32,513 nucleotides of DNA from Omnitrophica bacterium RIFCSPHIGHO2_02_FULL_51_18 (GCA_001804125.1 MHFI01000001.1:10884-43396), one strand, 5' to 3'; numbered from the stretch's first letter, positions 671-19,226 are shown. Notes: a model not told the origin generated them from the letters alone. Translations and numbers: made by a program.

Positions 671-678
671 AACATGAA

Positions 679-725
679 CCCAGCCCTTCCAAAAGATATA
701 TTGAGCGACGCCCGGAAGGGCGGGG
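679..725 (+). repeat. Junction hairpin repeat, copy A1, at the tig start
   Basis: Left arm CCCAGCCCTTCC (679-690) pairs with GGAAGGGCGGGG (714-725) with one mismatch across a 23-base spacer. The right arm carries a Shine-Dalgarno-like GGAAGG with five bases before GTG 725, so the ribosome-binding site of tig would be locked in the stem. An ATG at 674, four bases after the hpf stop, opens a frame (MNPALP...RKGGVKS) that reads straight through the hairpin into tig. Related copies occur at 13137, 18480 and 19138. Confidence 0.85.
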
Positions 726-1984
726 TGAAGTCCCATATGAAAAAGCTTAAAGATTGTAAAATTTGCATGAGTGTGGAGGTTGAGGCGAAGCTTGTTGAAA
801 ATCGTTTCCAGGAGGTCTTAAGGGACATCCAACGGGCGGCGACGCTTCCCGGCTTCCGTCAAGGCAAGGCACCCATGGAGCTTGTTGAAAAGCAGTACAC
901 GAACGAAGTTTACGAAGAGGTGCTCAAGTCGCTTGTGCCGGAGGCGTACCATCAATCGGTAACGACGCACAAAGTTTCTCCGGTGTCCTTGCCATCCATT
1001 TCCAATATCAAAATGACGCGGGGATCCGCCTTAAGTTTTGCGGCTGAATTTGAAAATGCGCCCGAATTTAACCTGAGGAACTACAAAGGCCTCAAGATCC
1101 TGAGAGCGCCGGTTCAAGTCGCTTCGGAGGACGTGGAAAAGGGCCTGGCTTCGCTTTTGGAGGCACGCGCCGAGTTTGTGCCCGTTTTGGAATCGCGTGC
1201 GGTCCGTGAAGGCGATATTTTGCTGACCGACATCGAAGTTTGGAAGGGGGGTCAGTATCTCGAGGGCCGCAAGGGCGCTGCGCTGTCCGTGAAACCGAAC
1301 GCGACGGACGATTTTTTTGACAAAGTCGTCGGCGCCGAGGCGGGCCATTCCGTGGAAGTTTCCATGGAACCTACAGAAGAGGAAAAAAGACAGGGCGTTG
1401 TCGGAAAGAAGCCAATGTACCGGATCACGGTCCGCGAAATTCAGGAAAAACGTCTGCCTGTCCTCGATGATGAATTGGCGAAAGGTTTCGGCAAAGAGAG
1501 CGCCGAAGCGCTTAAGGAGGCGATCCGCACGGACGTTGCCGGCTACAAACAGAGTGAGTCTTACGAAAGCATGAAGGAACAGCTTTTTGAGAAACTTTTA
1601 TCGAGGGTGTCCTTTGAGCTTCCCCGGGGTCTTGTGCAAAAACAAAAAGAAAAACTGGTCGAGCAATCGCGGCGGCAGCTTGAAAAATTCGGGGTGCCTT
1701 CCGATCAAAGGGAGATTTTGGAGAAAAAGCTGCAGGATGCGGCGGACGTGAAGGCTGCCCGTCAGGTCAGGCTGTATTTTATCCTGCAGAAAGTCGCCGA
1801 GTTGGAAGACATCCATGCGGACGAGTCGGATCTGGAAAATCGTTTGAGGGCACTCGTCGAAGAGTCCGGCCGGCCGCTGGAGGAAGTGCGCTCCGTTTTT
1901 GAGGAGGATGTCCGGGAGAGTATGAAGGAGAAGAAAACCGTAGAGTTTTTGCTTGCCAACGCAAAATTAGAGGAGACAACATGA
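725..1984 (+). CDS. tig: Trigger factor, ribosome-associated chaperone and peptidyl-prolyl isomerase
   Basis: First chaperone to meet nascent chains at the ribosome exit tunnel. Starting from GTG 725 the protein has 419 residues. The N-terminal domain carries the ribosome-docking signature GFRQGKAP at residues 43-50. A PPIase domain occupies roughly 130-240, followed by the helical C-terminal chaperone arms, rich in K, E and R. GTG 725 is preferred because it puts six residues before the KLKDCK motif, as in typical trigger factors, and follows GGAAGG. Alternatives are ATG 737 and ATG 674; the latter adds 17 residues encoded by the hairpin repeat. The stop overlaps the clpP start as ATGA, so the two are coupled, as in the classic tig-clpP(-clpX) operon. 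Confidence 0.95.
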
Positions 1985-2586
1985 GTATCCTGATCCCGAT
2001 GGTGATTGAGCAAACCGGCCGCAGCGAGCGCGCCTACGACATTTATTCGCGGCTCTTGAAAGACCGCGTGCTTTTTATCGGCACGCCGATAGACGATAAT
2101 GTTGCGAATCTCGTGGTGGCGCAGCTTTTGTTCCTCCAAATGGAAGACTCGGAAAAGGAAATTCACCTTTATATCAATTCGCCGGGGGGTTCCATCACGA
2201 GCGGCCTTGCGATTTATGACACGATGCAGTTCTTAAAGTGCGACGTGTGCACTTACTGCATCGGACAGGCGGCCAGCATGGGCGCGGTGCTCTTGGCGGC
2301 CGGCACGAAGGGCAAGCGCTATTCACTTCCCAATTCGCGCGTGATGATCCACCAGCCGTGGGGCGGTGTGCAGGGCGTGGCCACGGACATCAATATTCAG
2401 GCGAAGGAAATACAAAATCTTAAAAACAGGCTGAATGAAATCCTGGCCAAGCACACGGGCCAGGCGGTCCAGAAGATAGAGAAGGACACGGACCGCGATT
2501 ATTTCATGTCTGCCGCCGAGTCCAAGGAATATGGCATCGTGGATGAGGTCGTGGCGAATATTCGGGCCATCAAGAAACAGCCATAA
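1981..2586 (+). CDS. clpP: ATP-dependent Clp protease proteolytic subunit
   Basis: Serine peptidase that forms the 14-mer chamber degrading substrates fed by ClpX, ClpA or ClpC. It has 201 residues, the normal length. The catalytic triad is visible: Ser99 in [14 protein letters not shown], His124 in MIHQPWGG and Asp173 in [25 protein letters not shown] is the usual substrate-channel segment. The start ATG overlaps the tig stop by four bases. In most genomes clpX comes next; here a serine-pathway aminotransferase follows after 22 bases, so the unfoldase must be encoded elsewhere. Confidence 0.98.
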
Positions 2587-2608
2587 GTAATAAGTTGGAG
2601 TTCAAATT

Positions 2609-3712
2609 ATGAGTGACTTTCTTCTTTTAACACCCGGACCCACAGGGGTTCCGCAAAGGATCTTGAAGGCATTAAGCCTTCCGATGATTCATCACCGCAC
2701 GAAAGAATACCAGGCGATCCTGGAGCGAGTGAACGCGAATCTCGGGAAAGTATTCCTGACCCGGCATCCGGTCATGACGTTTGCGTCTTCGGGAACCGGT
2801 GCGATGGAGGCTTCGATCACAAATTTGTTTTCACAAGGCGATCTTGTCCTGTCGTTCTCGGCCGGTAAATGGGGCGAACGCTACCGTGACATCGCGCGCG
2901 CTCACGGGCTTCAGGTTAAAAGTTACGAGAAAAAATACGCCGAAGCGTTTGAGGCGCAGGAGATTGCGCAAGCGCTCGAAGATCACCCGAATGCGAAGGG
3001 CGTTTTGACGACCCTGTGCGAGACCTCCACGGCCGTGGCTCACCCGATTCAGGAAATTGCGAAAGTCACGCGCTTGGGTCGCGCGATTCTTTTGGTCGAC
3101 GCGATCAGCGGGCTGGGCTGTGACATTTTCAAAATGGACGAGTGGGGTGTCGACGTCACGGTATGCGGAAGCCAAAAAGGGCTTATGCTTCCGCCGGGCT
3201 TGAGTTTTGTGGCGCTGAACGAGAGGGCGCAAGCGCTTGTCCCGAAGTCCGTGCTTCCGAAGTATTACTTTAATTTTGCCCAAACGCTCAAGGCGATGGC
3301 GAAGAACGACACGCCGTTTACGCCGGCGATCAGTCTGGTGCGGGGTTTGGAGGAGGCGCTTTTCATGATTCTCGAGGAAGGGCTTGAAAATGTCTGGAAC
3401 CGCCACGCCCGGATCGCGCATTTTGTAAGGAGCAAGGCCGCACAGATGAACCTTCAGATTTTTGCCCAATCACCGTCGAATGCCGTGACGGCGATCGGGA
3501 TGCCCGGGGGCATCGTTTCCAAAGACGTGATCAAGCACATGAGGGACGCGCATCAGGTGGTGATGGCGGACGGGCAGGGTGAGCTTCAGGGGAAGATCGT
3601 GCGTTTTGCGCACATGGGCTGCTGCACGATGAAGGACGCCGAACGGGGGATGCACGCGTTTCAGGATGCCCTGGCGAAGGCGGGCTATGAGATTCCGACA
3701 GGTGTGCTATGA
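2609..3712 (+). CDS. Class V PLP aminotransferase (serine-pyruvate / alanine-glyoxylate type)
   Basis: PLP-dependent aminotransferase of 367 residues. The start is supported by TGGAG nine bases upstream. It opens with LLLTPGPTGVP, the class V signature of the serine-pyruvate/alanine-glyoxylate branch. Asp164 (LLVDAISGLGCD) should contact the pyridine nitrogen, and Lys190 (VCGSQKGLMLPPG) is the expected Schiff-base lysine. Its TGA overlaps the serA ATG as ATGA. That coupling suggests it performs or supports the transamination of 3-phosphohydroxypyruvate in place of a SerC, as proposed for related proteins in some archaea and bacteria. Substrate specificity cannot be read from sequence; glycine/glyoxylate metabolism is the main alternative. 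Confidence 0.9.
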   Translation: MSDFLLLTPGPTGVPQRILKALSLPMIHHRTKEYQAILERVNANLGKVFLTRHPVMTFASSGTGAMEASITNLFSQGDLVLSFSAGKWGERYRDIARAHGLQVKSYEKKYAEAFEAQEIAQALEDHPNAKGVLTTLCETSTAVAHPIQEIAKVTRLGRAILLVDAISGLGCDIFKMDEWGVDVTVCGSQKGLMLPPGLSFVALNERAQALVPKSVLPKYYFNFAQTLKAMAKNDTPFTPAISLVRGLEEALFMILEEGLENVWNRHARIAHFVRSKAAQMNLQIFAQSPSNAVTAIGMPGGIVSKDVIKHMRDAHQVVMADGQGELQGKIVRFAHMGCCTMKDAERGMHAFQDALAKAGYEIPTGVL

Positions 3713-5292
3713 AAAAAATTTTAATTTGCGATGATTTGGCCGAAGAAGGCCTGAATCTTTTCCGCGGCGAAAAGAATTTCGAGGTTATCATTAAGACGAA
3801 GCTTCCGGTTGAGGAACTCAAGAAAGAAATCGCGGACGCGGATGCGTGCGTGGTTCGCTCGGGGACGCAACTGACCGCGGAAATCATAGAAGCGGCTAAG
3901 AAACTCAAAGTCATCGGCCGTGCCGGCGTGGGCCTTGACAATGTGGACGTCGATGCGGCGTCCAAGAAAGGGATTGTCGTCATCAACACGCCGGGGGGCA
4001 ACACGGTTTCGGCGGCTGAGCACGCATTTTGCTTGATCATGGCGCTCGCGCGCAACATCCCTCAGGCGAGTGTTTCGATGAAAAAGGGCGAATGGGAACG
4101 GAAGAAATTCACCGGGGTTGAGCTTTATGAAAAAACCCTGGGCGTGCTGGGCCTGGGGCGCATCGGCACCGAAGTGTCCAGGCGCGCGCAAGGCTTCGGG
4201 ATGCGCGTGATTGCGTATGATCCTTTCCTGCGCGTCGACAAGGCGAACCAAATCGGCGTGGAGCTGGTGTCGTTTGACGAGCTTTTGAAACGGTCTGATT
4301 TTCTGACGCTTCATATGCCGCTGACGGCCGAGAATAAAAATATGATCGGTGAGAAAGCGCTTCTGAAGATAAAAAAAGGCGTGCGGATCGTGAACTGCGC
4401 CCGCGGCGGCCTTATCGATGAGACTGCCTTGGTAAAAGCGATTCAAAGCGGCCAGGTAGCGGGGGCGGCGCTCGATGTGTTCGAAACGGAGCCGCCCGCC
4501 GGCAATCCTTTGATCGGTTTGCCTCAAGTGATTGCCACGCCGCATCTGGGTGCTTCCACGGAGGAAGCGCAGATCGCGGTCGCCGTGGATGTTGTTCAGT
4601 GCCTGATTGATTTTTTCAAGGGAAAAGGCACACGCAATGCCGTGAATGTGCCTGCCGTCGATCCCGAGGTGCTGGAACAGCTCCGGCCGTATCTCTATTT
4701 AGCCGAAAAGCTGGGCGCTTTGCAGGCGCAGCTCATAGACGGCCAGATTTTCCAGGTGGATATTCAATATTACGGTCAGGTCGTGGAATATGAGACGACG
4801 CCGGTGACCGTTTCGGTGATTAAAGGGCTTCTGACGCCGATTCTGGCGGAGAGCGTGAATTACGTGAATGCCTCTTTTTTGGCGAAGGAGCGCGGGATTA
4901 AAATTACCGAATCCAAGTCCTCCGGTACGTCGCATTACGCAAACCTGATTCAGGTGGAGGTCAAGACCGATAAGAGAAAAAGCCTGGTTTCGGGCACGGT
5001 GTTTACCCGAGAAGACGTGCGCATCGTGCGAATGGACCGTTTTGACGTCGAGGCGGTGCCCGAAGGCTATATGCTGCTTATTTCCAACCGCGACGTGCCC
5101 GGTATTGTGGGCCAGATCGGCACGTTGTTAGGCTCCAACCGCATCAATATCGCAGGCATGACGCTTGGCCGCGACGTGCCCGGCGGCGAAGCCAGGACCG
5201 TGCTTAAGATTGACAGCGTCGTTTCGGAGGAAATTCTGCAAAAGATCCGAAAAGCCGAAAATATCCTGGACGCGAAGCTTATTAAATTATAG
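3709..5292 (+). CDS. serA: D-3-phosphoglycerate dehydrogenase, long form with ASB and ACT domains
   Basis: NAD-dependent oxidation of 3-phosphoglycerate to 3-phosphohydroxypyruvate, the first step of serine synthesis. It has 527 residues, the size of the long (type I) enzyme. The Rossmann motif GLGRIG is at 148-153, and the catalytic trio is Arg232 (NCARGGLIDE), Glu261 (FETEPP) and His279 (ATPHLGAST). After the catalytic core (about 1-315) come the intervening ASB domain and a C-terminal ACT domain from about residue 453 (MLLISNRDVPGIVGQIGTLL), the usual serine-feedback site. It overlaps the preceding aminotransferase by four bases, so two serine-pathway steps are probably made together. A long repeat element follows immediately. 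Confidence 0.97.
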   Translation: MKKILICDDLAEEGLNLFRGEKNFEVIIKTKLPVEELKKEIADADACVVRSGTQLTAEIIEAAKKLKVIGRAGVGLDNVDVDAASKKGIVVINTPGGNTVSAAEHAFCLIMALARNIPQASVSMKKGEWERKKFTGVELYEKTLGVLGLGRIGTEVSRRAQGFGMRVIAYDPFLRVDKANQIGVELVSFDELLKRSDFLTLHMPLTAENKNMIGEKALLKIKKGVRIVNCARGGLIDETALVKAIQSGQVAGAALDVFETEPPAGNPLIGLPQVIATPHLGASTEEAQIAVAVDVVQCLIDFFKGKGTRNAVNVPAVDPEVLEQLRPYLYLAEKLGALQAQLIDGQIFQVDIQYYGQVVEYETTPVTVSVIKGLLTPILAESVNYVNASFLAKERGIKITESKSSGTSHYANLIQVEVKTDKRKSLVSGTVFTREDVRIVRMDRFDVEAVPEGYMLLISNRDVPGIVGQIGTLLGSNRINIAGMTLGRDVPGGEARTVLKIDSVVSEEILQKIRKAENILDAKLIKL

Positions 5293-5349
5293 CAGAAGCA
5301 AGAAATAGGAAACAGGAAGCACAAACAATTAAGCACGAAATACGAAACT

Positions 5350-5466
5350 CGAAATCCGAAACAATGACAGAAATTCAAATTAGTCAAACTCGAAACAAGC
5401 GTTTTGGTCATTTCGATTTTAATTATTCGAATTTGTTTCGGATTTCGGATTTCGGATTTCGGATTT
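5350..5466. repeat. AT-rich inverted repeat, copy B1, upstream of purA
   Basis: The 177-base serA-purA gap is filled with variants of CGAAATCCGAAACAA. One arm at 5350-5364 is exactly complementary to TTGTTTCGGATTTCG at 5433-5447. The right side continues as four tandem copies of CGGATTT (5439-5466), ending four bases before the purA ATG. The same element in diverged form lies upstream of proS. It has no stop in the purA frame, so automatic start calling could wrongly extend purA to 5404. Confidence 0.85.
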
Positions 5467-5469
5467 AAC

Positions 5470-6752
5470 ATGCCCAATACCGTCGTTGTCGGCGCGCAAT
5501 GGGGCGACGAAGGCAAGGGAAAAATCATCGACATCCTCTCCGAGCACGCGGATTACGTCGTCCGCTACCAGGGCGGCAACAATGCGGGTCATACGGTTGT
5601 CAAGGAATGCGGTGAGTTTGTGCTGCATCTTATTCCTTCGGGAATTTTTCACAAAGATGTTCGCTGCGTGATCGGAAACGGCGTGGTGATTGACCCAGAC
5701 GCGCTGCTGCAGGAAATTAACAACCTGAATAAGAAAGGGATCTCGGTCAAAGGGCGTCTCTTCATCAGCGACCGGGCCCACCTTATCTTTCCTTATCATA
5801 AAACAGGCGACCGCCTGCGCGAGTCCCAAAAAGGCTTCACAAAAATCGGCACCACCGGGCGAGGCATCGGCCCCAGTTATGCCGATAAGGCCTCGCGTTC
5901 CGGCATCCGTATCGCGGATCTTTGCGACGGGCCTCTTTTTCGCGAAAAACTCAAAAAAAGCCTGCTGGAAAAGAACAAACTCTTTGAGAAAGTCTACCGC
6001 GCGAAAGGTTTTAAGTTCTCCAAGATTCATGCCGATTACTTACGGTTTGCAAAAGCGATGCGGCCCTACGTGTGCGACACCGCCGTTTTACTGAACCAGG
6101 CCATTCGCAAAAAAAAATGCGTGCTGTTTGAGGGCGCCCAAGGCACGCACTTGGACGTGGACCACGGCACGTATCCTTTTGTGACTTCGAGCTACGTGAC
6201 CGCGGGCGGGGCGGCCGTGGGGACAGGCGTGCCGCCGACGGCCATTGACAACGTGATCGGCGTGGTCAAGGCCTACACGACACGCGTGGGGGAGGGACCG
6301 TTTCCGACGGAATTCGACACAAAGCTCATGGCCCGGATCCGGCGAAAAGGCAGGGAATTCGGCGCGACGACCGGGCGGCCGAGACGCTGTGGCTGGTTTG
6401 ACGCGGTGCTTGTGAAGTATTCATGCATGATCAACGGCATCCAAGAGATTGCCGTCACGAAGCTTGACGTATTGGACGATTTGAAAGAAATAAAAATCTG
6501 CGTCGCTTACCGCCACCGCGGAAGGCTTTACCGCCGTTTCCCCGCTTCGCTTACAACACAGTGGGAGGGCCGGCCGGTGTATGAAACGCATCGGGGATGG
6601 ATGGCTGACACCTCGCAGGCCAAGAAATTCTCGGGTTTACCTGAGAATGCGCGCAAGTACCTTCACCGGCTTTCAGAGCTTCTGGGAGTCCCGATCACGA
6701 TCTTGTCGATAGGCTCCCACGAAAAACAAACCCTTTATCTGCCCGCCAAACG

Positions 6753-6759
<7 letters not shown>
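5470..6759 (+). CDS. purA: Adenylosuccinate synthetase
   Basis: Joins IMP and aspartate with GTP to make adenylosuccinate, the first committed step to AMP. From ATG 5470 it has 429 residues beginning MPNTVVVGAQWGDEGKGK, the standard N-terminus. Catalytic Asp13 lies in GDEGKGK (12-18) and His41 in NNAGHT. Further signatures are QGTHLDVDHGTYPFVTSS, TTGRPRRCGWFD for IMP and aspartate binding, and NKMD-like VTKLDVLDDL for guanine. An in-frame ATG at 5404 exists, but its 22 extra codons come entirely from the upstream repeat. The end overlaps the uppS start by seven bases. Confidence 0.97.
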
Positions 6760-7555
<796 letters not shown>

Positions 7556-7559
<4 letters not shown>

Positions 7560-8374
7560 GTCCGGTTATAAAATTTGTGAATCGTGTTTTTACAAGCCTG
7601 TTACTGCTGAGCGTCACCGCTTACATCCTTTTTTTTACGAATGTTTTCTTTTTTGCGCTGGAGGTCATTGGTTTTACGGCGTTGGCGCTGTATGAATTTT
7701 TCAGTTTGCTTAAAGCTAAAGGCGTCCATATTTACCGGCTGTTCGGCGTTTCGATGGGAATTATTATTCCGTCCATCGTGTTTATGGAACTGGGGACCAC
7801 GCAGTCGGGCGAGATCCTGTTTCTCGTGTTGGGCTGCCTTTTCCTGTTTTTGCTCCAGTTTTTTCATAAGGACAATTCCCAGGCATTGACCGGAATCGCA
7901 GTCACGCTTTTCGGCGTTTTGTACGTGAGCTGGTTCTTAAGTTTTGTGATCAAAATCCGGTTCATGGAGAACGGGATGTTGTGGGTTGCGTACCTGGTGG
8001 CGGTCACGAAGGCCGCTGACATCGGGGCGTACAGCGTCGGCACGCTTTTTGGGCGTAAGACCCTGATTCCGCACGTGAGCCCGAGGAAAACAGTGGAGGG
8101 GCTCGTCGGCGGGATTTCCTTAAGCATCTTTGTTTCCGTTCTGCTCGGCAGGCACTTGCCGATAGACTTCACGCTTTTTCATTGGGTGGTGACGGGCCTT
8201 TTAATCGGCGGCGTGGGCCAGATCGGGGACTTGTCGGAGTCCCTGATAAAGCGCTTCTGCGAGGCTAAAGATTCGGGCCGTCTCCTGCCCGGAATGGGAG
8301 GCGTGCTCGATTCAATCGACAGCATTCTTTTTACGGCGCCCGTCTTTTACTTTCATTTGAAAATTTATGCGTAA
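7556..8374 (+). CDS. cdsA: Phosphatidate cytidylyltransferase
   Basis: Membrane enzyme making CDP-diacylglycerol from phosphatidate and CTP, the branch point for phospholipids. It has 272 residues and many hydrophobic helices, starting with LLLLSVTAYILFFTNVFFFAL. The CdsA signature is near residues 228-256: SLIKRFCEAKDSG...PGMGGVLDSID. In the textbook pattern the last part reads PGHGGxxDRxD; here Met and Ser replace His and Arg, a variation I believe occurs in related phyla. GTG 7556 overlaps the uppS stop and is preceded by CGGGAG. The 3' end overlaps dxr by eight bases. Confidence 0.93.
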
Positions 8375-9527: not shown

Positions 9528-10597
9528 TATTTGTTTTTGTGCTCGGAGTGCTTGTGATTGTGCACGAGTTCGGCCATTTTTTGGCGGCCAGGCGTGTCGG
9601 CGTGCGGGTCGAGAAGTTCTCGATCGGGTTCGGGCCCGTGATATTCGGCCGGCGGTTTGGGGACACCGAATTCTGTGTGTCTCTCCTGCCGCTCGGCGGT
9701 TTTGTGAAACTGGCTGGAGAAAATCCTGAGGAAGCCAAAGGGCTTGCCTGGGAGTTTAACTCCAAGAGGCTTTGGGAGAAGTTTTTTATCGTGTTTGCCG
9801 GGCCTTTCATGAACGCATTTTTGGCGTTTGTAATTTTCTCGGTGATATTTCTCGTGGGCACGCCGACGATGACGACAAAAGTCGGCAAGGTGATGGATGG
9901 CACGCCTGCCAAAGAAGCCGGAATTGTGGAAGGGGACCGCGTGACGGCACTGAACGGCCAACCGGTTAAAGTCTGGGAGGATATTCTGGAGGTCGTGCAC
10001 AAGGCCGCGGGGCCTGTCGTGTTCAGCGTCGAACGGGATGGCGCCGCTTACCAGTTTTCGGTGATGCCGAAAGTAAGGGAGATAAAGGATATCTTTGGAA
10101 GGAAGAGCCGTCTTTCATTTGTCGGAATCGCGCCTTCCAACGAAATGATTTATCTGAAGAACCCGCCGCTTAAGGCCGTCGCACTTGGTTTTGAGCGCGT
10201 GTGGACGCTCACGACGATGATCTTTTACTCGCTGGCGCTGATGATTACGGGTGCTTTGCCGTTCAAAGATTCGGTGACAGGCCCGATCGGAATATTTTTC
10301 ATGACACAGGAAGCGGCCAAGATGGGAATCGTCACTCTTTTTTATTTCATGGGTTCCTTGAGCGTCAGTTTGTTTGTTTTGAATCTGCTGCCGATTCCGG
10401 TGCTTGACGGAGGGCACATCCTGTTTATTTTGATTGAAAAACTGAAAGGTTCTCCGCTCAAAGAGAGGGTCAAGGAGCGGATGACTCAAGGGGGGCTCGT
10501 GCTGCTTTTAGGTCTCATGACTGTCGTGATCCTGCAGGATGTGAACCGGTTCTCAATCGTGGAAAATTTTTTAAAAATATTTAGGCAAAATGGATAA
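9512..10597 (+). CDS. rseP: Site-2 intramembrane zinc metalloprotease, RseP family
   Basis: Polytopic protease cutting transmembrane substrates such as anti-sigma factors in envelope stress. It has 361 residues. The zinc motif HEFGH is at residues 18-22 in the first membrane helix, and the third zinc ligand is Asp299 in NLLPIPVLDGG (291-301). A single PDZ domain spans about 122-195 (GKVMDGTPAKEAGIVEGDRV), whereas E. coli RseP has two, so this is the shorter form. The start overlaps dxr by 16 bases. No anti-sigma factor gene is nearby, so its substrate is unknown. Confidence 0.95.
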   Translation: MPSILVFVFVLGVLVIVHEFGHFLAARRVGVRVEKFSIGFGPVIFGRRFGDTEFCVSLLPLGGFVKLAGENPEEAKGLAWEFNSKRLWEKFFIVFAGPFMNAFLAFVIFSVIFLVGTPTMTTKVGKVMDGTPAKEAGIVEGDRVTALNGQPVKVWEDILEVVHKAAGPVVFSVERDGAAYQFSVMPKVREIKDIFGRKSRLSFVGIAPSNEMIYLKNPPLKAVALGFERVWTLTTMIFYSLALMITGALPFKDSVTGPIGIFFMTQEAAKMGIVTLFYFMGSLSVSLFVLNLLPIPVLDGGHILFILIEKLKGSPLKERVKERMTQGGLVLLLGLMTVVILQDVNRFSIVENFLKIFRQNG

Positions 10598-10600
10598 TCT

Positions 10601-10738
10601 GAAGCACGAAATCCGAAATTCGAAATCCGAAACAAATTCTAATTTTAAAAATTCAAAATTTCAAAACACGTGTTTTGGATTTTGGTTATTTGGAATTTGG
10701 TCATTGTTTCGGATTTCGTGCTTCGGATTTCGGATTTA
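10601..10738. repeat. AT-rich inverted repeat, copy B2, upstream of proS
   Basis: The rseP-proS gap is filled by the same family as 5350-5466. CGAAATCCGAAACAA (10621-10635) is exactly complementary to TTGTTTCGGATTTCG (10704-10718). The centre is a perfect 16-base palindrome, CAAAACACGTGTTTTG (10662-10677). Additional copies of GCACGAAATCCGAA and CTTCGGATTTCGG flank the arms. It ends just before the proS ATG and has no stop in the proS frame. Confidence 0.87.
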
Positions 10739-10741
10739 AAC

Positions 10742-12511: not shown

Positions 12512-12530
12512 TTTTGTTAACTTAACAAAA
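12512..12530. repeat. Short perfect inverted repeat after proS
   Basis: TTTTGTTAA and TTAACAAAA flank a single C immediately after the proS stop. It could be a protein-binding dyad or an RNA hairpin; no T tract follows. Confidence 0.5.
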
Positions 12531-12550
12531 GTCATCATAGTTTACTTGTG

Positions 12551-12577
12551 AAAAGTGGGTGAAGACCCACTTTTTTT
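12551..12577 (+). terminator. Intrinsic terminator between proS and rimP
   Basis: AAAGTGGGT (12552-12560), loop GAAG, ACCCACTTT (12565-12573), then further Ts to 12577. It is a textbook hairpin plus T tract. It separates the proS transcript from rimP-nusA-infB, or acts as a leader terminator of the latter, since hairpins of this kind precede rimP in other bacteria. Confidence 0.85.
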
Positions 12578-12632
12578 ATTGTCGTTCGCTTCTCGCTTAC
12601 GACAATATCCCGAGCGTAGTCGAGGGATAACC
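12577..12632. repeat. Intergenic palindromic repeats upstream of rimP
   Basis: TATTGTCG (12577-12584) and CGACAATA (12600-12607) form an 8-bp inverted repeat. It is followed by TCCCGAGCGTAGTCGAGGGA (12608-12627), itself partly self-complementary. The latter string resembles a repeat widely seen in intergenic DNA of uncultured bacteria. No promoter consensus was recognised here. Confidence 0.6.
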
Positions 12633-12650
12633 GTTCAAAGAACCATTTTT

Positions 12651-13115
12651 ATGCTGCCCATTGAAATTGAGTCCAGATTAGAGGATATTAAGAGCCAAAT
12701 TGAGGCGGCGGGCGCTGAACTTATTGACATAAGTTTAAGAAGATCAGGGGGTCGCGGCACTTTAACACTGCTTGTGGATAAGCCGGGCGGAATCACGCTC
12801 GACGAATGTGCGCTGATCAACGGCCGTCTGGGTACTTTTTTGGATGAGACGGGGTTCAGCGGCCGCCCTTATATCCTGGAAGTCAATAGTCCGGGCCTAG
12901 ACAGGCCGCTCAAGACCCAGAAGGATTTCCTGCGCGTGGTGGGGCAGAGGGTGCGGGTCGTGGCGCTCGATGCGTTGAAGAAAAGTTATGTGCATATCGG
13001 TCAGGTTCTGTCGGCGCAGGGAGGGGTTTTGGAATTAAAAACCCAGAAAGACGGGCAGACGCTTCGTTTGCCGCTTGCGGCTGTGGTGAAGGCGGTCCGT
13101 GAAATAAAAATTTAA
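12651..13115 (+). CDS. rimP: Ribosome maturation factor RimP
   Basis: Assists late 30S subunit assembly. It has 154 residues from ATG 12651 (MLPIEIESRLEDIKSQIEAAGAELIDISL), the usual length. The conserved core LTLLVDKPGGITLDECALINGRLGTFLDE matches the RimP pattern (DxxGGITxxDC), followed by YILEVNSPGLDRPLKTQKDF with the SPGLDRPL signature. The C-terminal SH3-like domain ends in AAVVKAVREIKI. The frame is open upstream to 12555, but that part is terminator and repeat DNA. It heads the conserved rimP-nusA-infB group. Confidence 0.95.
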   Translation: MLPIEIESRLEDIKSQIEAAGAELIDISLRRSGGRGTLTLLVDKPGGITLDECALINGRLGTFLDETGFSGRPYILEVNSPGLDRPLKTQKDFLRVVGQRVRVVALDALKKSYVHIGQVLSAQGGVLELKTQKDGQTLRLPLAAVVKAVREIKI

Positions 13116-13136
13116 AAACAGAGAAATTGCCATGAG

Positions 13137-13205
13137 TCCCGCCCTTCCAAGTGTTTTATGAGGGGCAGGATTTAAGCAAGTAAAACCAGATTAGGAAGGG
13201 CGGGA
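13137..13205 (+). repeat. Junction hairpin repeat, copy A2, at the nusA start
   Basis: TCCCGCCCTTCC (13137-13148) and GGAAGGGCGGGA (13194-13205) pair perfectly over 12 bp across a 45-base spacer. The right arm holds GGAAGG five bases before the nusA ATG, whose A is the last base of the stem. A mini-ORF starts just before the left arm (ATG 13132) and reads MSPALPSVL, stopping at 13161 inside the loop. Confidence 0.88.
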
Positions 13206-14452
13206 TGAGCACGGAACTTATATCCGTTTTAGAAAACATCGAAAGAGAAAAAGGGATCAGCCGGCAGGTGCTGATTGAATCCGTGGAGGCCGCGCTTGTG
13301 TCCGCGGCGCGGAAGGTCGTCCACGATAAAGACAAGGACATCCAGGTTAAGATTGACCTTGAAACCGGCCGCATCAAGATCCTTTCCGAAGGCAAGGAGA
13401 TCGTTTCGAACGAGTTTGGCCGCATCGCGGCGCAGACCGCCAAGCAGGTGATCTTCCAGAAAATCCGCGAGGCCGAGCGGGACGTTATTTTCAATGAATT
13501 CAATAAAAAATCAAACTCCATCGTCAGTGGGACCGTGTACCGCTTTGAAAAAGGGGCGCTCCTCGTGGATCTGGGGAAAACGGAAGGTATGCTTCCTAAA
13601 AGAGAGCTCTCGCCGCGGGACAGCTATCGCCAGGGCGATACGATACACGCCTATATCCTTGAGGTGAACAAGACCGCCAAGGGCCCGCAGATCCTTTTGT
13701 CCCGCAACCACCCTAATTTTGTTAAATGCCTTTTCGAGCTAGAGGTGCCTGAGGTGGCGGAGGGTATGGTCGAGATCAAGTCGGTGTCCCGCGAGGCGGG
13801 CGATCGCACAAAGATCGCCGTCTGGTCCAAGAATGAAAAGGTGGATTGCGTCGGCGCCTGCGTCGGCATCCGGGGGTCGCGCGTGAAGGGCGTTGTGAAG
13901 GAACTGCAGGGAGAAAAAATCGATATCGTGCGTTGGAGCGAGAACACGGAAGAGTTCATCCAGGCCGCTTTAAGTCCCGCCGAGATATCCTCGGTCAAGG
14001 TGCTTGACGGGGAAGAGAGAAAGGCGGAAGTGATCGTAGGTGACGACCAGCTTTCGCTGGCGATCGGCAAGAACGGCCAGAATGTAAGGCTCGCCTCAAA
14101 ACTGACCGGCTGGTCAATTGATATCCGCTCAAAGAAGGAGATTGTGAAGGAAAAACTGGAGTCCCAGATGGCGGAAGAGACCGGCGGTGACGATCAGGGT
14201 GTGGGGTCGATAGAAGGCGTGGGGCCCAAGACCGCACAGGCACTTTCGGAAGCGGGCTATAAGACGCTGGGCGATCTTAAGAACGCCAAAGAGGAAGAGC
14301 TTCTCAAGATCAAGGGGGTCGGGAAGAAGACGATAGAAAAGATTATGGGTAAGGTGCGGGGCGCCGCCGCTGCCGGAGACGCCGGAGAGGCCGGGGAAAC
14401 TGCGGCCGCCGAACCTCCTGAAACGGCAGCGCCAGAGGCGGAGGAAAAATAA
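13205..14452 (+). CDS. nusA: Transcription termination/antitermination factor NusA
   Basis: RNA polymerase-associated factor in pausing, termination and rRNA antitermination. It has 415 residues. Order of domains: N-terminal polymerase-binding domain (1-100); S1 (about 105-170); KH1 with GIRGSRVKGVVKEL (221-235); KH2 with SLAIGKNGQNVRLASKL (284-300); a helix-hairpin-helix pair (about 333-385: GVGPKTAQALSEAGY, KGVGKKTIEKI); and an Ala/Glu-rich tail. The HhH segment replaces the acidic repeats of E. coli NusA. The start is set by the right arm of the A2 hairpin. A boxA-like site ahead of the 16S gene in this window is a plausible site of action. Confidence 0.97.
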   Translation: MSTELISVLENIEREKGISRQVLIESVEAALVSAARKVVHDKDKDIQVKIDLETGRIKILSEGKEIVSNEFGRIAAQTAKQVIFQKIREAERDVIFNEFNKKSNSIVSGTVYRFEKGALLVDLGKTEGMLPKRELSPRDSYRQGDTIHAYILEVNKTAKGPQILLSRNHPNFVKCLFELEVPEVAEGMVEIKSVSREAGDRTKIAVWSKNEKVDCVGACVGIRGSRVKGVVKELQGEKIDIVRWSENTEEFIQAALSPAEISSVKVLDGEERKAEVIVGDDQLSLAIGKNGQNVRLASKLTGWSIDIRSKKEIVKEKLESQMAEETGGDDQGVGSIEGVGPKTAQALSEAGYKTLGDLKNAKEEELLKIKGVGKKTIEKIMGKVRGAAAAGDAGEAGETAAAEPPETAAPEAEEK

Positions 14453-14455
14453 TTC

Positions 14456-16714
14456 ATGTCGGTTCGGGTTCATGAGCTGGCCAAAAAATACAAACTGAGC
14501 TCGAAAGAGTTCATGGATAAGCTTAAGGCGCTCAAGATTGGCGCCAAAAGCCATATGAGTGTTTTATCCGGTACGGATGCCGAAAAAATAAAGACGGCGT
14601 TTGCGTCTGGAGCCAAGACCCCTTCCAAGCCACAAGCAGGCGCCGCTTCCAAAGAGCCGCCCAAGGTTCCTTCGTCACAGCCGGGCTCGATAGAAAGCGT
14701 TAAACAACAGCTTCTTTTGCAGCGCAGCGCCGCCAAAGCCGCCTCCGCTTCTTCATTCGCTGAGATCAAGTCGAGGCCCGTTTCGACCGCCGCTTCTTCT
14801 GTGAGTTCGACGCCGTCCTTTAGAAGACCGCAGACGGTTTTACCGCAGAGACCCAGGCCCCAGGCGCCGTCCATAAAAAAACATTCGATAGCTTCATCGC
14901 ATGGCTTGGCGGCGATGCCTTCCGCGTCCGCCGCGGTTGTGCAGGAGGCTCCGAAGGTCCGTAAGGTCCAGCTGCGGACGCCGATCACCGTAAAGGATTT
15001 GGCCGATGGTTTGACCGTGAGGCCCAGTGATCTCATCGCGCGCCTCATCAAAATCGGCATCTTTGCTAATATCAACCAGTCGGTGAATTTTGACGTGGCC
15101 AAGAAGGTGGCGCAGGAATATAGCGTCGAGCTGGAAGAGCAAAAAGCGGTCGTCGAGGACAAAATTTTAAAACCCTCGGATGAAATCAAGGACAAGTCAA
15201 AACTTGTGATTCGCGCCCCGATTGTTACATTCATGGGCCACGTCGATCACGGGAAGACCTCGCTTCTGGATGCGATCCGCAAGACCAAGGTGGCGGCAGG
15301 GGAAGCCGGCGGCATCACGCAGCATATCGGGGCTTATGAAGTATTTCTGCCGAAGGGCGCCGTGACATTTTTGGATACGCCGGGCCACGAGGCGTTCACC
15401 GCGATGCGCGCGCGCGGTGCGAGCGTCACGGATGTCGTGGTTCTCGTCGTGGCGGCAGATGACGGCGTCATGCCCCAGACGATTGAAGCGATCGACCATG
15501 CGAAGGCGGCGAACGTGCCAATCATTGTCGCAATCAATAAAATGGACCTGCCTTCCGCAAATTCTGAACGCGTGAAGAAAGCGCTCATGGAGCATGGCTT
15601 GATGTCGGAAGACTGGGGCGGAAAGACGATCATGTTGGGCGTTTCAGCCAAAACCGGAAAGGGCATTGATGAGCTTCTTGAGATGCTGGTGCTGGAATCG
15701 GAGCTTTTGGAGCTCCGCGCCAATCCTTTAGCGCTTGCGCGCGGGGTGGTGATTGAGGCGGAACTCTCCAAGGAAAGCGGGGTTCTCGTGACGATGCTTG
15801 TCGAGGATGGGACATTGCGGGTAGGCGACGCAGTGGTTGTGGGGCCCTATTCCTGCAAGGTGCGCGCGATGATCAATGACCGCGGGCAGCGCGTAAAAGA
15901 AGCGCTTCCTTCGATGCCGGTTGAGATTCTGGGCCTTCCCGGAGTTCCGAAGGCCGGTGACCGGTTTTATGTCGTGAAGGATGAAAAAACTGCCAAGGAA
16001 ATCATAGAGAAAAAGCTGGCAGGCCCTCAGGAGAAAGCGGTCCCCACTTCTCATATTACGCTGGAGCATCTTTACGAAGACATTAAGTCCGGCAAACTCC
16101 AGGAGCTCAACCTGATCATTAAGGCGGATGTCCAGGGCTCCGCCGAGGCGCTTCGCAGCACGCTCGCAAAAATTCAGGCCAAGGACGTGCGCCTCAACAT
16201 CATTCATACGGGCATCGGCGACGTGTCGGAGTCGGACGTAATGCTCGGCGCCGCTTCGAACGCGGTGATTATCGGCTTTCATGTCGGGATTGTTTCCACC
16301 GCCCGCGAGGCCGCCGAAAAGGAACAGGTGGACGTTCGTTTTTATGAAATCATCTATGAAGTCAAAAGCGCCATCGAAAAGGCGATGGAAGGGCTTCTGT
16401 CTCCCGAAATCAAGGAAGTGTTTGTCGGGACCGCGGAGGTTCGCCAGGTATTTAAAGTTTCAAAGATCGGGGTGATTGCCGGCTGTTCGGTGGTCAAAGG
16501 CAAGATCGTGCGGAATTTTCCCTGCCGCGTGAACCGCGGCGGCAAGAAGGTCCATGAAGGCAAGGTGGAAAGTCTGAAACGCTTTAAGGATGACGCGCGC
16601 GAGGTGCTGGAGGGTTTTGAATGCGGGATCGGCGTCTCTAATTTTGACGAGGTACTGGTAGGCGACCGCATCGAAGTGTTTGAAATCCAGAAAAAGGAGA
16701 GAAAGCTCGAGTGA
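14456..16714 (+). CDS. infB: Translation initiation factor IF-2
   Basis: GTPase delivering initiator tRNA to the 30S subunit. It has 752 residues. There are two IF2-N helical domains: residues 1-50 (VHELAKKYKLSSKEFMDKLK) and about 176-228 (TPITVKDLADGLTV...). A long Ala/Ser/Pro/Lys linker separates them. The G domain has GHVDHGKT at 261-268, DTPGH at 307-311 and NKMD at 361-364, followed by SAKTGKGIDEL. C-terminal domains end in VGDRIEVFEIQKKERKLE. It begins three bases after nusA. In many bacteria rbfA, truB or ribF follow; here trpS overlaps the stop by four bases. Confidence 0.97.
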   Translation: MSVRVHELAKKYKLSSKEFMDKLKALKIGAKSHMSVLSGTDAEKIKTAFASGAKTPSKPQAGAASKEPPKVPSSQPGSIESVKQQLLLQRSAAKAASASSFAEIKSRPVSTAASSVSSTPSFRRPQTVLPQRPRPQAPSIKKHSIASSHGLAAMPSASAAVVQEAPKVRKVQLRTPITVKDLADGLTVRPSDLIARLIKIGIFANINQSVNFDVAKKVAQEYSVELEEQKAVVEDKILKPSDEIKDKSKLVIRAPIVTFMGHVDHGKTSLLDAIRKTKVAAGEAGGITQHIGAYEVFLPKGAVTFLDTPGHEAFTAMRARGASVTDVVVLVVAADDGVMPQTIEAIDHAKAANVPIIVAINKMDLPSANSERVKKALMEHGLMSEDWGGKTIMLGVSAKTGKGIDELLEMLVLESELLELRANPLALARGVVIEAELSKESGVLVTMLVEDGTLRVGDAVVVGPYSCKVRAMINDRGQRVKEALPSMPVEILGLPGVPKAGDRFYVVKDEKTAKEIIEKKLAGPQEKAVPTSHITLEHLYEDIKSGKLQELNLIIKADVQGSAEALRSTLAKIQAKDVRLNIIHTGIGDVSESDVMLGAASNAVIIGFHVGIVSTAREAAEKEQVDVRFYEIIYEVKSAIEKAMEGLLSPEIKEVFVGTAEVRQVFKVSKIGVIAGCSVVKGKIVRNFPCRVNRGGKKVHEGKVESLKRFKDDAREVLEGFECGIGVSNFDEVLVGDRIEVFEIQKKERKLE

Positions 16715-17700
16715 CCCCGTCCCGCGTCCTTTCCGGAATGCGGCCTACCGGCCCGCTTCACCTGGGCCACTTGCTTGGAGCGCTGGAAAATTGGGTGAAG
16801 CTTCAGGCGGACCACGACTGTTTCTTCATGGTCGCGGATCTTCACGCGCTGATGGGTGAGTATGAAAACCCGAAAGAAATTAAAAAAAATTCCATTGAAA
16901 TGGTGATTGACTGGCTCGCGTGCGGGATCGATCCGGAGCGAAGCACGATCTTCGTGCAGTCCCAGATTCCGGAACATTCGGAGTTGGCCGCGATACTTGG
17001 GATGATCGTTCCGCTCGGGCGGCTTGAGCGCAACCCCGCCTACAAAGAACAGCTTCGCCAGATCCAGGGCCGGGACCTTATGACCTATGGGTTTTTAGGA
17101 TACCCGGTTTTACAGGCCGCCGACATTCTCCTGTATAAGGCCCATCAAGTGCCTGTCGGGGAGGACCAACTGGCGCATCTTGAGATCACGCGAGAAATCG
17201 TCAGGCGCTTTCGGTTTTTATATAAAAAGGATATTTTTCCGGAACCGGAGTCACTGCTCACAAAAGAAGCGCGGATCCTGGGAATTGACCGCCGTAAGAT
17301 GTCCAAGAGTTACGGCAACGCGATCAATCTCTCGGACCCCGAAGAGAGTGTGCATAAAAAAGTGCAGTCGATGATTACGGATCCTGAGCGCGTGAAAGTG
17401 ACCGACCCCGGGCATCCGGACATTTGCAATGTGTATGCCTATTATGGCATTTTCTCGGGGAATCGCCGGGTTCAGGAAGTGCAGGATTGGTGTACGGGCG
17501 CCAAAAAGGGATGCACGGACTGTAAGAGGGGTCTCGCGGACATCCTGGCCGAGAGGCTCCGTCCGCTTCGGGAGCGGCGCGGGAAAATAGCAAACGAGCC
17601 CGGCGCCGTGGAGAAAATTTTGGCAAAAGGAAAAGAAAAGGCAAGTGCCGTTGCCCGGCAAACAATCGCCGAGGTAAAAACGGCTTTGAATCTTTTATGA
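16711..17700 (+). CDS. trpS: Tryptophanyl-tRNA synthetase
   Basis: Class I synthetase charging tRNA-Trp. It has 329 residues, the typical bacterial length. The HIGH-type motif HLGH is at 17-20 (SGMRPTGPLHLGHLLG) and KMSKS at 196-200 (RRKMSKSYGN). PVGEDQLAHLE is also diagnostic. The start is GTG 16711, overlapping the infB stop (GTGA), with AAAGGAG upstream. A cysteine pair (CTGAKKGCTDCK, about residue 262) in the C-terminal region resembles that of some other bacterial TrpRS; its role is unknown. Confidence 0.96.
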   Translation: MTPSRVLSGMRPTGPLHLGHLLGALENWVKLQADHDCFFMVADLHALMGEYENPKEIKKNSIEMVIDWLACGIDPERSTIFVQSQIPEHSELAAILGMIVPLGRLERNPAYKEQLRQIQGRDLMTYGFLGYPVLQAADILLYKAHQVPVGEDQLAHLEITREIVRRFRFLYKKDIFPEPESLLTKEARILGIDRRKMSKSYGNAINLSDPEESVHKKVQSMITDPERVKVTDPGHPDICNVYAYYGIFSGNRRVQEVQDWCTGAKKGCTDCKRGLADILAERLRPLRERRGKIANEPGAVEKILAKGKEKASAVARQTIAEVKTALNLL

Positions 17701-17701
17701 T

Positions 17702-18478
17702 ATGTCTAAGCCGGTAAGAGTCAAGCTGGACGTTTTTGAGGGGCCGCTCGATCTTCTTCTTTATTTGATTAAAGAGGAAGAGCTGGATATTTATGATATT
17801 CCGATTACGCGCATTACGGAGCAATACCTTGAGTACCTGAATTTGATGGAGATGCTGGACTTGGGAGTGGCGGGCGAGTTTTTGGTGATGGCCGCCGAGT
17901 TGATGCACATCAAGTCGAGTATGCTTCTGCCGCCGGATCCCGAGACGCCGCCCGAGGAGCTGGACCCCAGGGGTGAGTTGGTGCGCCGCCTTTTGGAGTA
18001 CAAGACGTTCAAGGAAGCGGCTGACAGGCTTCGCCAGATGGGAGAGCGCCGCAGCGGTATTTTCGGACGTTTTGGCGTGCAGCCGGAACTTGAAGGCGGC
18101 GGCCTGCCTGCCGGCAGGCAGGACAGCCCGTTTGCCGAAGTCTCGATTTTTGATCTCATCAAAGCACTGTCCCGGGTCCTCATGGACATGCCTCGGCAGG
18201 ATATCCATGAGGTCCTGAAGGATGAGTTTACGGTGGCCGACAAAGTCCATGAAATTTTTCACCGATTGGTGAAGGAGCCAGTGATTTATTTCAGCTCGCT
18301 TTTCAGGGCGGCCAAGAACAAACTTGAGGTGATTACGACGTTTCTGGCGCTCTTGGAGCTTATCCGCTTAAAAGAGGTGCTGATCGCCCAGCACAATCAT
18401 TTTGATGAAATAGAGATCCGCCGGAATGTCGTGGCGCCGCGCGAGCTTAACACAGACGGGGAAGCAAAAAACCAATGA
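17702..18478 (+). CDS. scpA: Segregation and condensation protein A (kleisin)
   Basis: Kleisin bridging SMC heads, working with ScpB in chromosome condensation. It has 258 residues. The conserved N-terminus VKLDVFEGPLDLLLYLIKEEELDIYDIPI and the winged-helix C-terminus (LLELIRLKEVLIAQHNHFDEI) are clear. Residues about 134-141 (LPAGRQ context) come from a perfect 20-base palindrome in the flexible linker. The start is one base after the trpS stop. The stop TGA is shared with the ATG of an 18-codon mini-ORF that leads to scpB. No smc gene is in the window. Confidence 0.95.
   Translation: MSKPVRVKLDVFEGPLDLLLYLIKEEELDIYDIPITRITEQYLEYLNLMEMLDLGVAGEFLVMAAELMHIKSSMLLPPDPETPPEELDPRGELVRRLLEYKTFKEAADRLRQMGERRSGIFGRFGVQPELEGGGLPAGRQDSPFAEVSIFDLIKALSRVLMDMPRQDIHEVLKDEFTVADKVHEIFHRLVKEPVIYFSSLFRAAKNKLEVITTFLALLELIRLKEVLIAQHNHFDEIEIRRNVVAPRELNTDGEAKNQ
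18103..18122. repeat. Perfect 20-base palindrome inserted in scpA
   Basis: CCTGCCTGCCGGCAGGCAGG is fully self-complementary. Read in frame it gives L-P-A-G-R-Q, a peptide I associate with repeat-derived insertions in proteins of uncultured bacteria. It falls in the linker between the N- and C-terminal ScpA domains, where an insertion should be tolerated. Confidence 0.88.
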
Positions 18479-18531
18479 GCCCCGCCCTTCCAAAGTTCAT
18501 GCCTGAAGCTCGGAAAGGAGGGGCGGGGTGA
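18475..18531 (+). CDS. Putative 18-codon mini-ORF coupling scpA to scpB
   Basis: The ATG at 18475 overlaps the scpA stop (ATGA). The frame reads MSPALPKFMPEARKGGAG and stops at TGA 18529-18531, which overlaps the scpB start GTG 18528 (GTGA). It spans the whole A3 hairpin. A ribosome translating it would melt the hairpin and arrive on the scpB start. Its codons are repeat-derived, so it may act only by being translated rather than as a peptide. Expression is not shown. Confidence 0.5.
   Translation: MSPALPKFMPEARKGGAG
18480..18528 (+). repeat. Junction hairpin repeat, copy A3, at the scpB start
   Basis: CCCCGCCC (18480-18487) pairs with GGGCGGGG (18521-18528), and TTCC (18488-18491) with GGAA (18512-18515). 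Five extra bases, AGGAG (18516-18520), bulge out on the right side and create a strong AAAGGAG Shine-Dalgarno sequence seven bases before GTG 18528. This copy may therefore leave the ribosome-binding site partly exposed, unlike A1 and A2. Confidence 0.85.
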
Positions 18532-19226
18532 GCGACACAGAACTTAAATACGCGATCGAGGCGCTTTTATTTGCGAGTGAGCGGCCGCTGACCGTAGACG
18601 AGATCCAGGAGGCCTTCTCCGCCGAAGGCGGATCCCTGCCCGACCGGCAGGCGGGCGCCTCTGGCGGACAGGAAGGTGTCTCTGAGAAGGACGTACGGGA
18701 ATACCTGGCGGAGCTTAAGAAGGAATACGAAACACAATCCCGGGGATTCAAGTTGTTTGAGATTGCCGGCGGTTGGCAGCTTGTGACCGACGAGAGGTTT
18801 TCTTCGTACTTGAAAAAATTTTACCAGTCGAGGGAGAAGAAAAGACTTAGCCGGGCAAGTCTTGAAACGCTCTCGGTGATTGCTTACAAACAACCTGTGA
18901 CGAGGGCCGACATTGAGGCGATCCGCGGCGTAAACGTGGACGGCGCCTTAAAAACGCTTTTGGAAAAGGGGCTTGCCAGGATCGCAGGCCGCAAAGAGGT
19001 GCCGGGGCGTCCGATTCTTTACCGAACGACGAAGGAATTTTTGGAGCATTTCGGCCTGAATTCCGTAAAAGAGCTCCCGCCGCTCAAGGAATTCACGTTG
19101 AAGGATATTGAAGGTCATCTTTTACCGCCCGAGCTTAACCCCGCCCTTCCAGAGTCAAAAAAAACTTTGAAGAGCGGTGAAATATCCGATTGGAAGGGCG
19201 GGGTAAAAAGTGAGGCTAACCCATGA
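18528..19226 (+). CDS. scpB: Segregation and condensation protein B
   Basis: Partner of ScpA in the SMC complex, built of two winged-helix domains. It has 232 residues, somewhat longer than the common 180-200. It opens TELKYAIEALLFASERPLTVDEIQEAF; the second domain has LSRASLETLSVIAYKQPVTRADIEAIRGVNVDGAL, the family hallmark. The extra length comes from two repeat-derived pieces: residues 31-47 (GC-rich palindrome at 18618-18668) and the C-terminal tail NPALP...WKGGVKSEANP encoded by hairpin copy A4. The start GTG follows AAAGGAG. The end overlaps pheA by four bases. Confidence 0.95.
   Translation: MSDTELKYAIEALLFASERPLTVDEIQEAFSAEGGSLPDRQAGASGGQEGVSEKDVREYLAELKKEYETQSRGFKLFEIAGGWQLVTDERFSSYLKKFYQSREKKRLSRASLETLSVIAYKQPVTRADIEAIRGVNVDGALKTLLEKGLARIAGRKEVPGRPILYRTTKEFLEHFGLNSVKELPPLKEFTLKDIEGHLLPPELNPALPESKKTLKSGEISDWKGGVKSEANP
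18618..18668. repeat. In-frame GC-rich palindromic insertion in scpB
   Basis: TCCGCC/GGCGGA (18618-18632), CCTGCC/GGCAGG (18635-18651) and a closing GGCGGA (18663-18668) give alternative stem pairings. The core CCCTGCCCGACCGGCAGG is shared with the proS insertion. It is translated as AEGGSLPDRQAGASGG between the first helices of ScpB. Confidence 0.85.
19138..19204 (+). repeat. Junction hairpin repeat, copy A4, in the scpB 3' end
   Basis: ACCCCGCCCTTCCA (19138-19151) and TGGAAGGGCGGGGT (19191-19204) are perfectly complementary over 14 bp with a 39-base spacer. Unlike A1-A3 it lies inside the coding end of the upstream gene, 18 bases before the pheA ATG. Its frame gives NPALP on the left arm and WKGGVKS on the right, matching the A1 frame at tig (NPALP, RKGGVKS). 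Confidence 0.88.

What the first reader, a model, noticed from the sequence alone, without database searches (positions are those of the whole stretch)
674..19204. A family of hairpins that carries the ribosome-binding site of the next gene
Four hairpins share arms CCCCGCCCTTCC / GGAAGGGCGGGG (679-725, 13137-13205, 18480-18528, 19138-19204) but have unrelated loops of 20-45 bases. At tig, nusA and scpB the right arm provides the Shine-Dalgarno sequence and its last base is the first base of the start codon (GGGCGGG then GTG or ATG). The left arm would sequester it. Same-position placement at three unrelated genes, all for growth functions, looks like a mobile or spread element that became a translation control module. 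Conservation of arms and not loops fits selection on pairing. The function is inference.
Basis: partly seen in the sequence, partly recalled or inferred. Interest (0 to 1): 0.85.

Follow-up and report, generated by a model that had tools for sequence, protein, structure and literature searches.

The report
Mobile hairpins inserted at start codons
Short mirror-image DNA insertions have spread through genomes of the bacterial phylum Omnitrophota and sit right on gene start codons, where one arm of the insertion becomes the gene's new ribosome-binding site; they look like mobile elements that carry a translation signal with them rather than a conserved regulatory switch.

Summary
The four hairpins are real. 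They belong to a family of about 13 exact or near-exact copies in this Omnitrophota-type genome. Ten of the 13 are flanked on both sides by the same four bases, TGAA or TGAG, the signature of a target-site duplication. The start codon of the next gene is the last base of the right arm plus the TG of the duplicated target. Relatives from the same order lack the insertion at the same junctions; nusA shows the empty site base for base. The same element occurs across Omnitrophota: 36 of 47 copies lie on the start codon of a real reading frame, against 5 of 34 for a sister palindrome family whose arm is not a ribosome-binding site (Fisher 2.8e-8). A third family with a perfect Shine-Dalgarno arm also sits at starts. 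In two orthologue panels of about 30 genera each, presence is sporadic, one start was hit twice independently, and old copies decay without compensating changes. So this is a mobile, miniature inverted-repeat-like element that carries a ribosome-binding site and replaces the one it lands on. The hairpin would hide that site in RNA, but a conserved control function is not supported. No mobilising enzyme was identified.

The parts
675..678 (+). left target-site duplication TGAA (tig copy)
   Evidence: equal 4-bp flanks
679..725 (+). element copy upstream of tig: arms CCCAGCCCTTCC / GGAAGGGCGGGG, loop 23
   Evidence: absent in G002, G005, G009, G012
725..727 (+). tig start codon GTG = last base of the right arm + TG of the right duplication (726-729 TGAA)
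   Evidence: tig by NCBIfam TIGR00115
13133..13136 (+). left target-site duplication TGAG (nusA copy; ancestral start ATGAG)
13137..13205 (+). element copy upstream of nusA: arms TCCCGCCCTTCC / GGAAGGGCGGGA, loop 45
   Evidence: 13 relatives lack it; most keep the single empty site ATGAGCACNGA
13205..13207 (+). nusA start codon ATG formed by element base A + TG of the duplication (13206-13209 TGAG)
18476..18479 (+). left target-site duplication TGAG; its TGA is the stop codon of scpA
18480..18528 (+). element copy between scpA and scpB: arms CCCCGCCCTTCC / GGAGGGGCGGGG, loop 25; right arm region AAAGGAGG is a full Shine-Dalgarno
   Evidence: duplex with anti-SD -16.8 kcal/mol
18528..18530 (+). 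scpB start codon GTG
19139..19203 (+). element copy inserted in frame in the 3' end of scpB (65 + 4 bp, multiple of 3), flanks TTAA / TAAA; encodes NPALPESKKTLKSGEISDWKGGV in the ScpB tail
   Evidence: relatives' ScpB lacks the insert
7471..7539 (+). second family (F2): arms CCCCACCACCTGTTTT / AAAACAGGTGGTGGGG with two inner hairpins, flanks TGA 7468-7470 / 7540-7542, in frame in the 3' end of uppS, just before cdsA
   Evidence: absent in relatives

Best explanation
The hairpins are copies of a small non-autonomous mobile element of 46-90 bp. It has a 12-bp terminal inverted repeat YCCCGCCCTTCC..GGAAGGGCGGGR around a variable loop, and it inserts at TGAR with a 4-bp target duplication (shown). 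When the target is the RTGAR start of a gene, often an ATGA stop/start overlap, the left duplicate keeps the end of the upstream gene. The right duplicate plus the last purine of the element rebuilds an ATG or GTG start codon, and the purine-rich right arm supplies a new Shine-Dalgarno sequence. Both genes therefore survive and the element is tolerated or favoured there (placement shown, reason inferred). In the transcript the left arm can mask the new ribosome-binding site; probably this only tunes translation down or couples it to the upstream ribosome, as a by-product of the inverted repeat (inferred). Afterwards the copy decays: pairing is lost and the upstream gene can read through it as a C-terminal tail, while a purine-rich leader before the start often remains.
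For: Equal TGAR flanks in 10 of 13 copies here and 38 of 47 equal 4-bp flanks across Omnitrophota. An arm-blind scan gives the same result (TGAA/TTCA by far the commonest flank). Relatives have empty sites at tig, nusA, scpB, pheA and cdsA. A sister genome in the same genus has an empty nrnA site, and there are two independent insertions at the same base of another gene among about 30 genera. Copies are present in 15 of 384 Omnitrophota genomes, scattered over families. Start-codon placement is 36/47, against 5/34 for the non-SD family F3 (Fisher 2.8e-8), although start codons make up only about 12% of the non-coding-or-start TGAR sites (104 vs 774). F2, an unrelated arm with AAAGGAGGTGG, also sits at starts. 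Anti-SD duplex energies: F1 -12.0, F2 -17.9, F3 -4.5 kcal/mol. Decayed nrnA copies pair 7/12.
Against: No transposase or autonomous partner was found. The Y1 transposase family occurs in 10 of 11 genomes whether or not they carry the element, and the single long arm pair with equal flanks turned out to be two separate copies. Arms are nearly invariant while loops are highly variable, which is unusual for a simple MITE and partly reflects searching with exact arms. Three of 13 copies here lack matching flanks. Genomes are draft bins; start codons are predicted.
Confidence: 0.78

Rival explanations
1. A conserved cis-regulatory RNA hairpin: the left arm masks the Shine-Dalgarno sequence and host selection keeps the pairing in order to control translation of growth genes.
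For: Strong predicted stem with the SD arm unpaired only 0.05% of the time. Covarying terminal pair: C-G 39, T-A 5, T-G 2, C-A 2. Two nrnA orthologues 79% identical in protein keep 52 of 53 element bases. A third at 57-59% protein identity keeps all 24 arm bases while the loop diverges.
Against: Hairpin absent at the same genes in all relatives tested and sporadic elsewhere. Decayed copies lose pairing without compensation. Target genes are functionally mixed. Orthologues with intact arms were found by exact arm search, so they are a biased sample. No Rfam match.
Confidence: 0.1
2. A translational-coupling device between operon neighbours: the upstream ribosome stops at the TGA at the left foot, melts the left arm and frees the ribosome-binding site at the right foot.
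For: In 12 of 46 copies the upstream stop codon is exactly the left TGA. The hairpin separates genes that overlap as ATGA in relatives.
Against: Many copies have the upstream stop 4-25 bases or more away or no upstream gene (XRE copy). The geometry follows automatically from duplication of an ATGA overlap. Not conserved in relatives.
Confidence: 0.12
3. REP/REPIN-type palindromes spread by a Y1 (RAYT) transposase as single-stranded hairpins.
For: Conserved ends, variable spacer and compensated end pair resemble REPINs (PMC3116915). Y1 transposases are present in this genome.
Against: A 4-bp target duplication is not expected of Y1 enzymes (established knowledge). Y1 genes do not track the element. 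Location is intragenic-start rather than extragenic.
Confidence: 0.1

Closest known systems
Prokaryotic MITEs (e.g. MITEAba12, RUP, Correia/NEMIS, ERIC)
   Same: short, non-coding, terminal inverted repeats, target-site duplication, multiple copies, stem-loop when transcribed (PMC10969869, PMC3049150, PMC6382973)
   Different: here the ends are a ribosome-binding site and the copies sit on start codons; known ones favour intergenic or 3' regions (e.g. pneumococcal repeats are enriched between convergent genes) and no parent transposon is found
Rickettsia palindromic elements (RPE)
   Same: palindromic insertions that survive inside or at the edge of genes, some in frame as extra peptide (PMC10969869); the scpB 3' copy and the uppS F2 copy behave this way
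   Different: shorter (46-90 bp vs about 150 bp), TGAR duplication, preferred site is the start codon
REPINs
   Same: conserved ends, variable spacer, compensatory changes between the two ends (PMC3116915)
   Different: target duplication present, not extragenic, no link to RAYT seen
Shine-Dalgarno-sequestering hairpins / translational coupling hairpins (general knowledge)
   Same: anti-SD arm pairs with the SD immediately before the start codon
   Different: those are conserved at a given gene; this one is spread over unrelated genes and absent in relatives

Membership tests
MITE | terminal inverted repeats, short, no coding capacity | tested here: met
   12-bp ends, 46-90 bp
MITE | target-site duplication | tested here: met
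   TGAR on both sides in 10/13 here; 38/47 equal 4-bp flanks in the phylum
MITE | empty sites in relatives | tested here: met
MITE | same ends as a transposase-encoding element | tested here: inconclusive
   no long arm pair with a gene between the arms in the loci held; whole genomes not scanned for it
MITE | copies homologous over their full length | tested here: not met
   loops of 22-66 nt, mostly not alignable; only ends shared in subsets. So 'MITE-like', not filed as a standard MITE
REPIN | extragenic location | tested here: not met
   36/47 on start codons
REPIN | association with a RAYT (Y1) transposase | tested here: inconclusive
   Y1 in 10/11 genomes with or without the element; absent from a 75% complete carrier
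Rickettsia palindromic element | in-frame insertion inside protein-coding genes | tested here: inconclusive
   met by the scpB 3' copy and the uppS F2 copy; most copies are at starts
Known structured RNA family | match to an Rfam model | tested here: not met
Conserved cis-regulatory hairpin | structure kept at orthologous genes with compensatory changes | tested here: not met
   absent or decayed in relatives, 7/12 pairs left

The most novel reading that the evidence does not exclude
Two or more unrelated palindrome families in Omnitrophota have evolved ends that are ribosome-binding sites, so that insertion into a start codon hands the target gene a new, structured translation start. In some hosts the hairpin, together with a second degenerate right arm inside the loop, works as a two-state switch opened by the upstream ribosome.
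Probability: 0.15. Interest if true: 0.85.

Novelty: new variant of a known kind. Interest (0 to 1): 0.62.

Why it matters
Mobile elements are known to bring promoters and terminators, and to add peptides; an element whose ends are a ribosome-binding site and whose target is the start codon itself would be a mobile translation start. It lets insertions settle inside tightly packed operons of essential genes without breaking either neighbour, it explains sudden changes of gene starts and C-terminal tails between species, and it misleads start-site annotation. The comparison of three palindrome families, two with an SD in the arm and one without, gives a clean way to separate insertion preference from selection.

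Tried and rejected
(1) Conserved regulatory hairpin: rejected as the main explanation after the orthologue panels. (2) Translated leader peptide MNPALP..: the left ATG is in frame with the gene at tig, but at nusA and scpB the spacing is not a multiple of 3. (3) Same repeat in Erythrobacter and Geminicoccaceae: these hits have longer, fully palindromic arms and no TGAR flanks, so they are a different repeat. (4) Autonomous partner: the one candidate, L179 1.7 kb, is two separate copies. (5) Y1/RAYT link: not discriminating. (6) Literature: no paper found that describes an element of this kind at start codons or in Omnitrophota; the library is open-access only.

Full report
What is there. The four hairpins of the finding exist as described, with small corrections: 679-725 (tig), 13137-13205 (nusA), 18480-18528 (scpB) and 19139-19203 (inside the 3' end of scpB). 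The arms are YCCCGCCCTTCC / GGAAGGGCGGGR with a few changes: tig has CCCA on the left, scpB has GGAG on the right, and nusA has T..A at the ends. The window is a housekeeping gene block (raiA, tig, clpP, serA, purA, uppS, cdsA, dxr, rseP, proS, rimP, nusA, infB, trpS, scpA, scpB, pheA) from a 1.53-Mb genome. The named organisms that share the element are Omnitrophota, and the window's own genome falls in the same phylum set.

The overlooked feature. Just outside the arms lies a direct repeat: ATGAA[..]GTGAAG at tig, ATGAG[..]ATGAGC at nusA, ATGAG[..]GTGAGC at scpB. Over the whole genome there are 13 such copies, including pgsA, a tandem pair before pdxJ, acpS, xerC/D, a DUF177-like gene, rodA, uvrC and an XRE-type regulator (names by NCBIfam; coaD, uvrC and the DUF177-like gene named by eye). 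In 10 of 13 the four bases next to the element, TGAA or TGAG, are the same on both sides. A scan of 404 kb that used no arm sequence, asking only for inverted repeats bounded by equal 4-bp flanks, recovered this family as the main hit.

It is an insertion. The same operon was fetched from 14 genomes of the order. At tig, nusA, scpB, pheA and cdsA the relatives have no hairpin. For nusA most relatives start ATGAGCACNGA right after rimP; in the window this start is duplicated around the element. The element therefore inserted into RTGAR with a 4-bp duplication of TGAR. The start codon used now is the last purine of the element plus the TG of the right duplicate, and the purine-rich right arm is the new Shine-Dalgarno. 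At scpA/scpB the left duplicate TGA is also the stop codon of scpA. Duplication of an ATGA overlap thus leaves both genes intact.

Phylum-wide. An exact arm-pair search over GTDB genomes found about 32 stretches in named Omnitrophota bins among the loci examined, nearly all with RTGAR flanks on both sides, in front of genes recognisable by eye as pgsA, queA, nrnA, coaD, mreD, purN, pyrC, xseB and ruvX. Fifteen of 384 Omnitrophota genomes of a spread sample carry exact copies. Hits in Erythrobacter and Geminicoccaceae are a different, longer palindrome without the flanks.

Internal controls. Two further palindrome families turned up. F2 has arms CCCCACCACCTSNTTT / AAANSAGGTGGTGGGG and inner hairpins that vary with compensating changes; it has TGA flanks and sits at starts of a cdaR-like gene, an aspartokinase, a rodZ-like gene and an rsmD-like gene (names by eye). 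F3 has arms CCCGTTAGAA / TTCTAACGGG, flanks mostly TAAA, and occurs in 63 of 384 genomes. The predicted duplex with the anti-Shine-Dalgarno is -12.0 for F1, -17.9 for F2 and -4.5 kcal/mol for F3 (a standard anti-SD was assumed, as the 16S 3' end is outside the window). Copies whose right flank opens a reading frame of more than 60 codons: F1 36/47, F2 6/10, F3 5/34; F1 against F3, Fisher p = 2.8e-8. In 404 kb there are 7657 TGAR sites, 774 of them non-coding, and only 104 gene starts of the form RTGAR, so harmless insertion anywhere outside genes would not give this placement. The simplest reading is that arms carrying a ribosome-binding site are retained at start codons. A targeting preference at starts cannot be excluded, but F3 argues against it.

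Is the hairpin conserved for control? Two orthologue panels were read without regard to arm sequence. At rbfA/nrnA (32 loci, mostly different genera), intact copies occur in three, a genome of the same genus as one of them has the empty site, and three others have decayed remains that pair at only 7 of 12 positions; in these rbfA reads through in frame, and a purine-rich stretch (GGAAG) is still present before the start codon. At an NGG1p-like gene (name by eye) the element is present in two genera and the other genera, including one of the same genus as a carrier, keep the plain start ATGAARYT or a close variant; two independent insertions at the same base are simpler than about 27 exact losses, although precise excision between the duplicates is possible. 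Against this, exact arms persist between nrnA orthologues 57-79% identical in protein, but those were found through exact arms. The terminal pair covaries (C-G 39, T-A 5, T-G 2, C-A 2; Fisher 2.4e-4), which could equally reflect a hairpin needed for mobility, as proposed for REPINs (PMC3116915).

Mechanism, shown and inferred. Shown by sequence: insertion, target duplication, start-codon reconstruction, SD in the arm, decay. Predicted: the arm masks the SD (folding of the four window copies). Inferred: translation of the downstream gene is reduced or coupled to the upstream ribosome until the left arm decays; selection tolerates or favours copies at starts. Unknown: the enzyme. Y1 transposases are present in most genomes with or without the element, and no autonomous copy was seen. 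The variable loop is unexplained; outside the window's genome many loops contain a degenerate second copy of the right arm (mean best match 7.3/12 against 6.1 in shuffled loops, Wilcoxon 1.8e-6 over all 48 loops), perhaps the trace of tandem insertion as seen before pdxJ.

Novelty. No Rfam family matches and no open-access paper found describes it. It works like a MITE and shares traits with Rickettsia palindromic elements and REPINs, but fails one usual MITE feature (full-length homology of copies) and the REPIN feature of extragenic location. It is filed as a new variant of a known kind. Limits: draft bins, predicted starts, exact-match searches, ORF-based gene calls, 404 kb of the own genome scanned without bias.

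Noticed in passing
window 7468-7542: Second palindrome family (F2), 69 bp, with two inner hairpins (three-way-junction-like), in frame in the end of uppS; other copies in the genome carry AAAGGAGGTGGTGGGG directly before GTG starts, with compensating changes in arms and inner stems.
   Followed up: partly
L111, L122, L129, L138, L196-L225: Third palindrome family (F3), arms CCCCGTTAGAA/TTCTAACGGGG, 4-bp flanks mostly TAAA, in 63 of 384 Omnitrophota genomes, often inside reading frames.
   Followed up: partly
loops of copies such as L111, L115, L155, L178, L179: Loops contain a degenerate second right arm (e.g. GGAAGGATGGGG), giving the left arm two possible partners; could be an alternative hairpin or a remnant of nested insertion.
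   Followed up: partly
L009, pdxJ junction (G000:C16:27102-27217): Two elements in tandem sharing a TGAA duplication: the second inserted at the first one's start-codon duplicate.
   Followed up: no
L015 (xerC/D) and L022 (uvrC): Copies without matching flanks; the gene starts at an ATG inside the loop and, at uvrC, the upstream murJ-like gene ends inside the element, perhaps recombination between two copies.
   Followed up: no
window 5329-5468 and 10596-10737: Tandem/inverted AAATCCGAAA (FGFRISDFGF-coding) repeats upstream of purA and proS.
   Followed up: no
window 18100-18120, 18640-18660, 12590-12620: Other short palindromic inserts coding LPAGRQ / PDRQAG / YPERSRG peptides in scpA, scpB and the rimP upstream region.
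   Followed up: no
L061 13112-13152 and 19188-19222, L062 16411-16470: REP-like palindromes GGGACACCCATTT..AAATGGGTGTCCC, likely linked to the genome's Y1 transposases.
   Followed up: no
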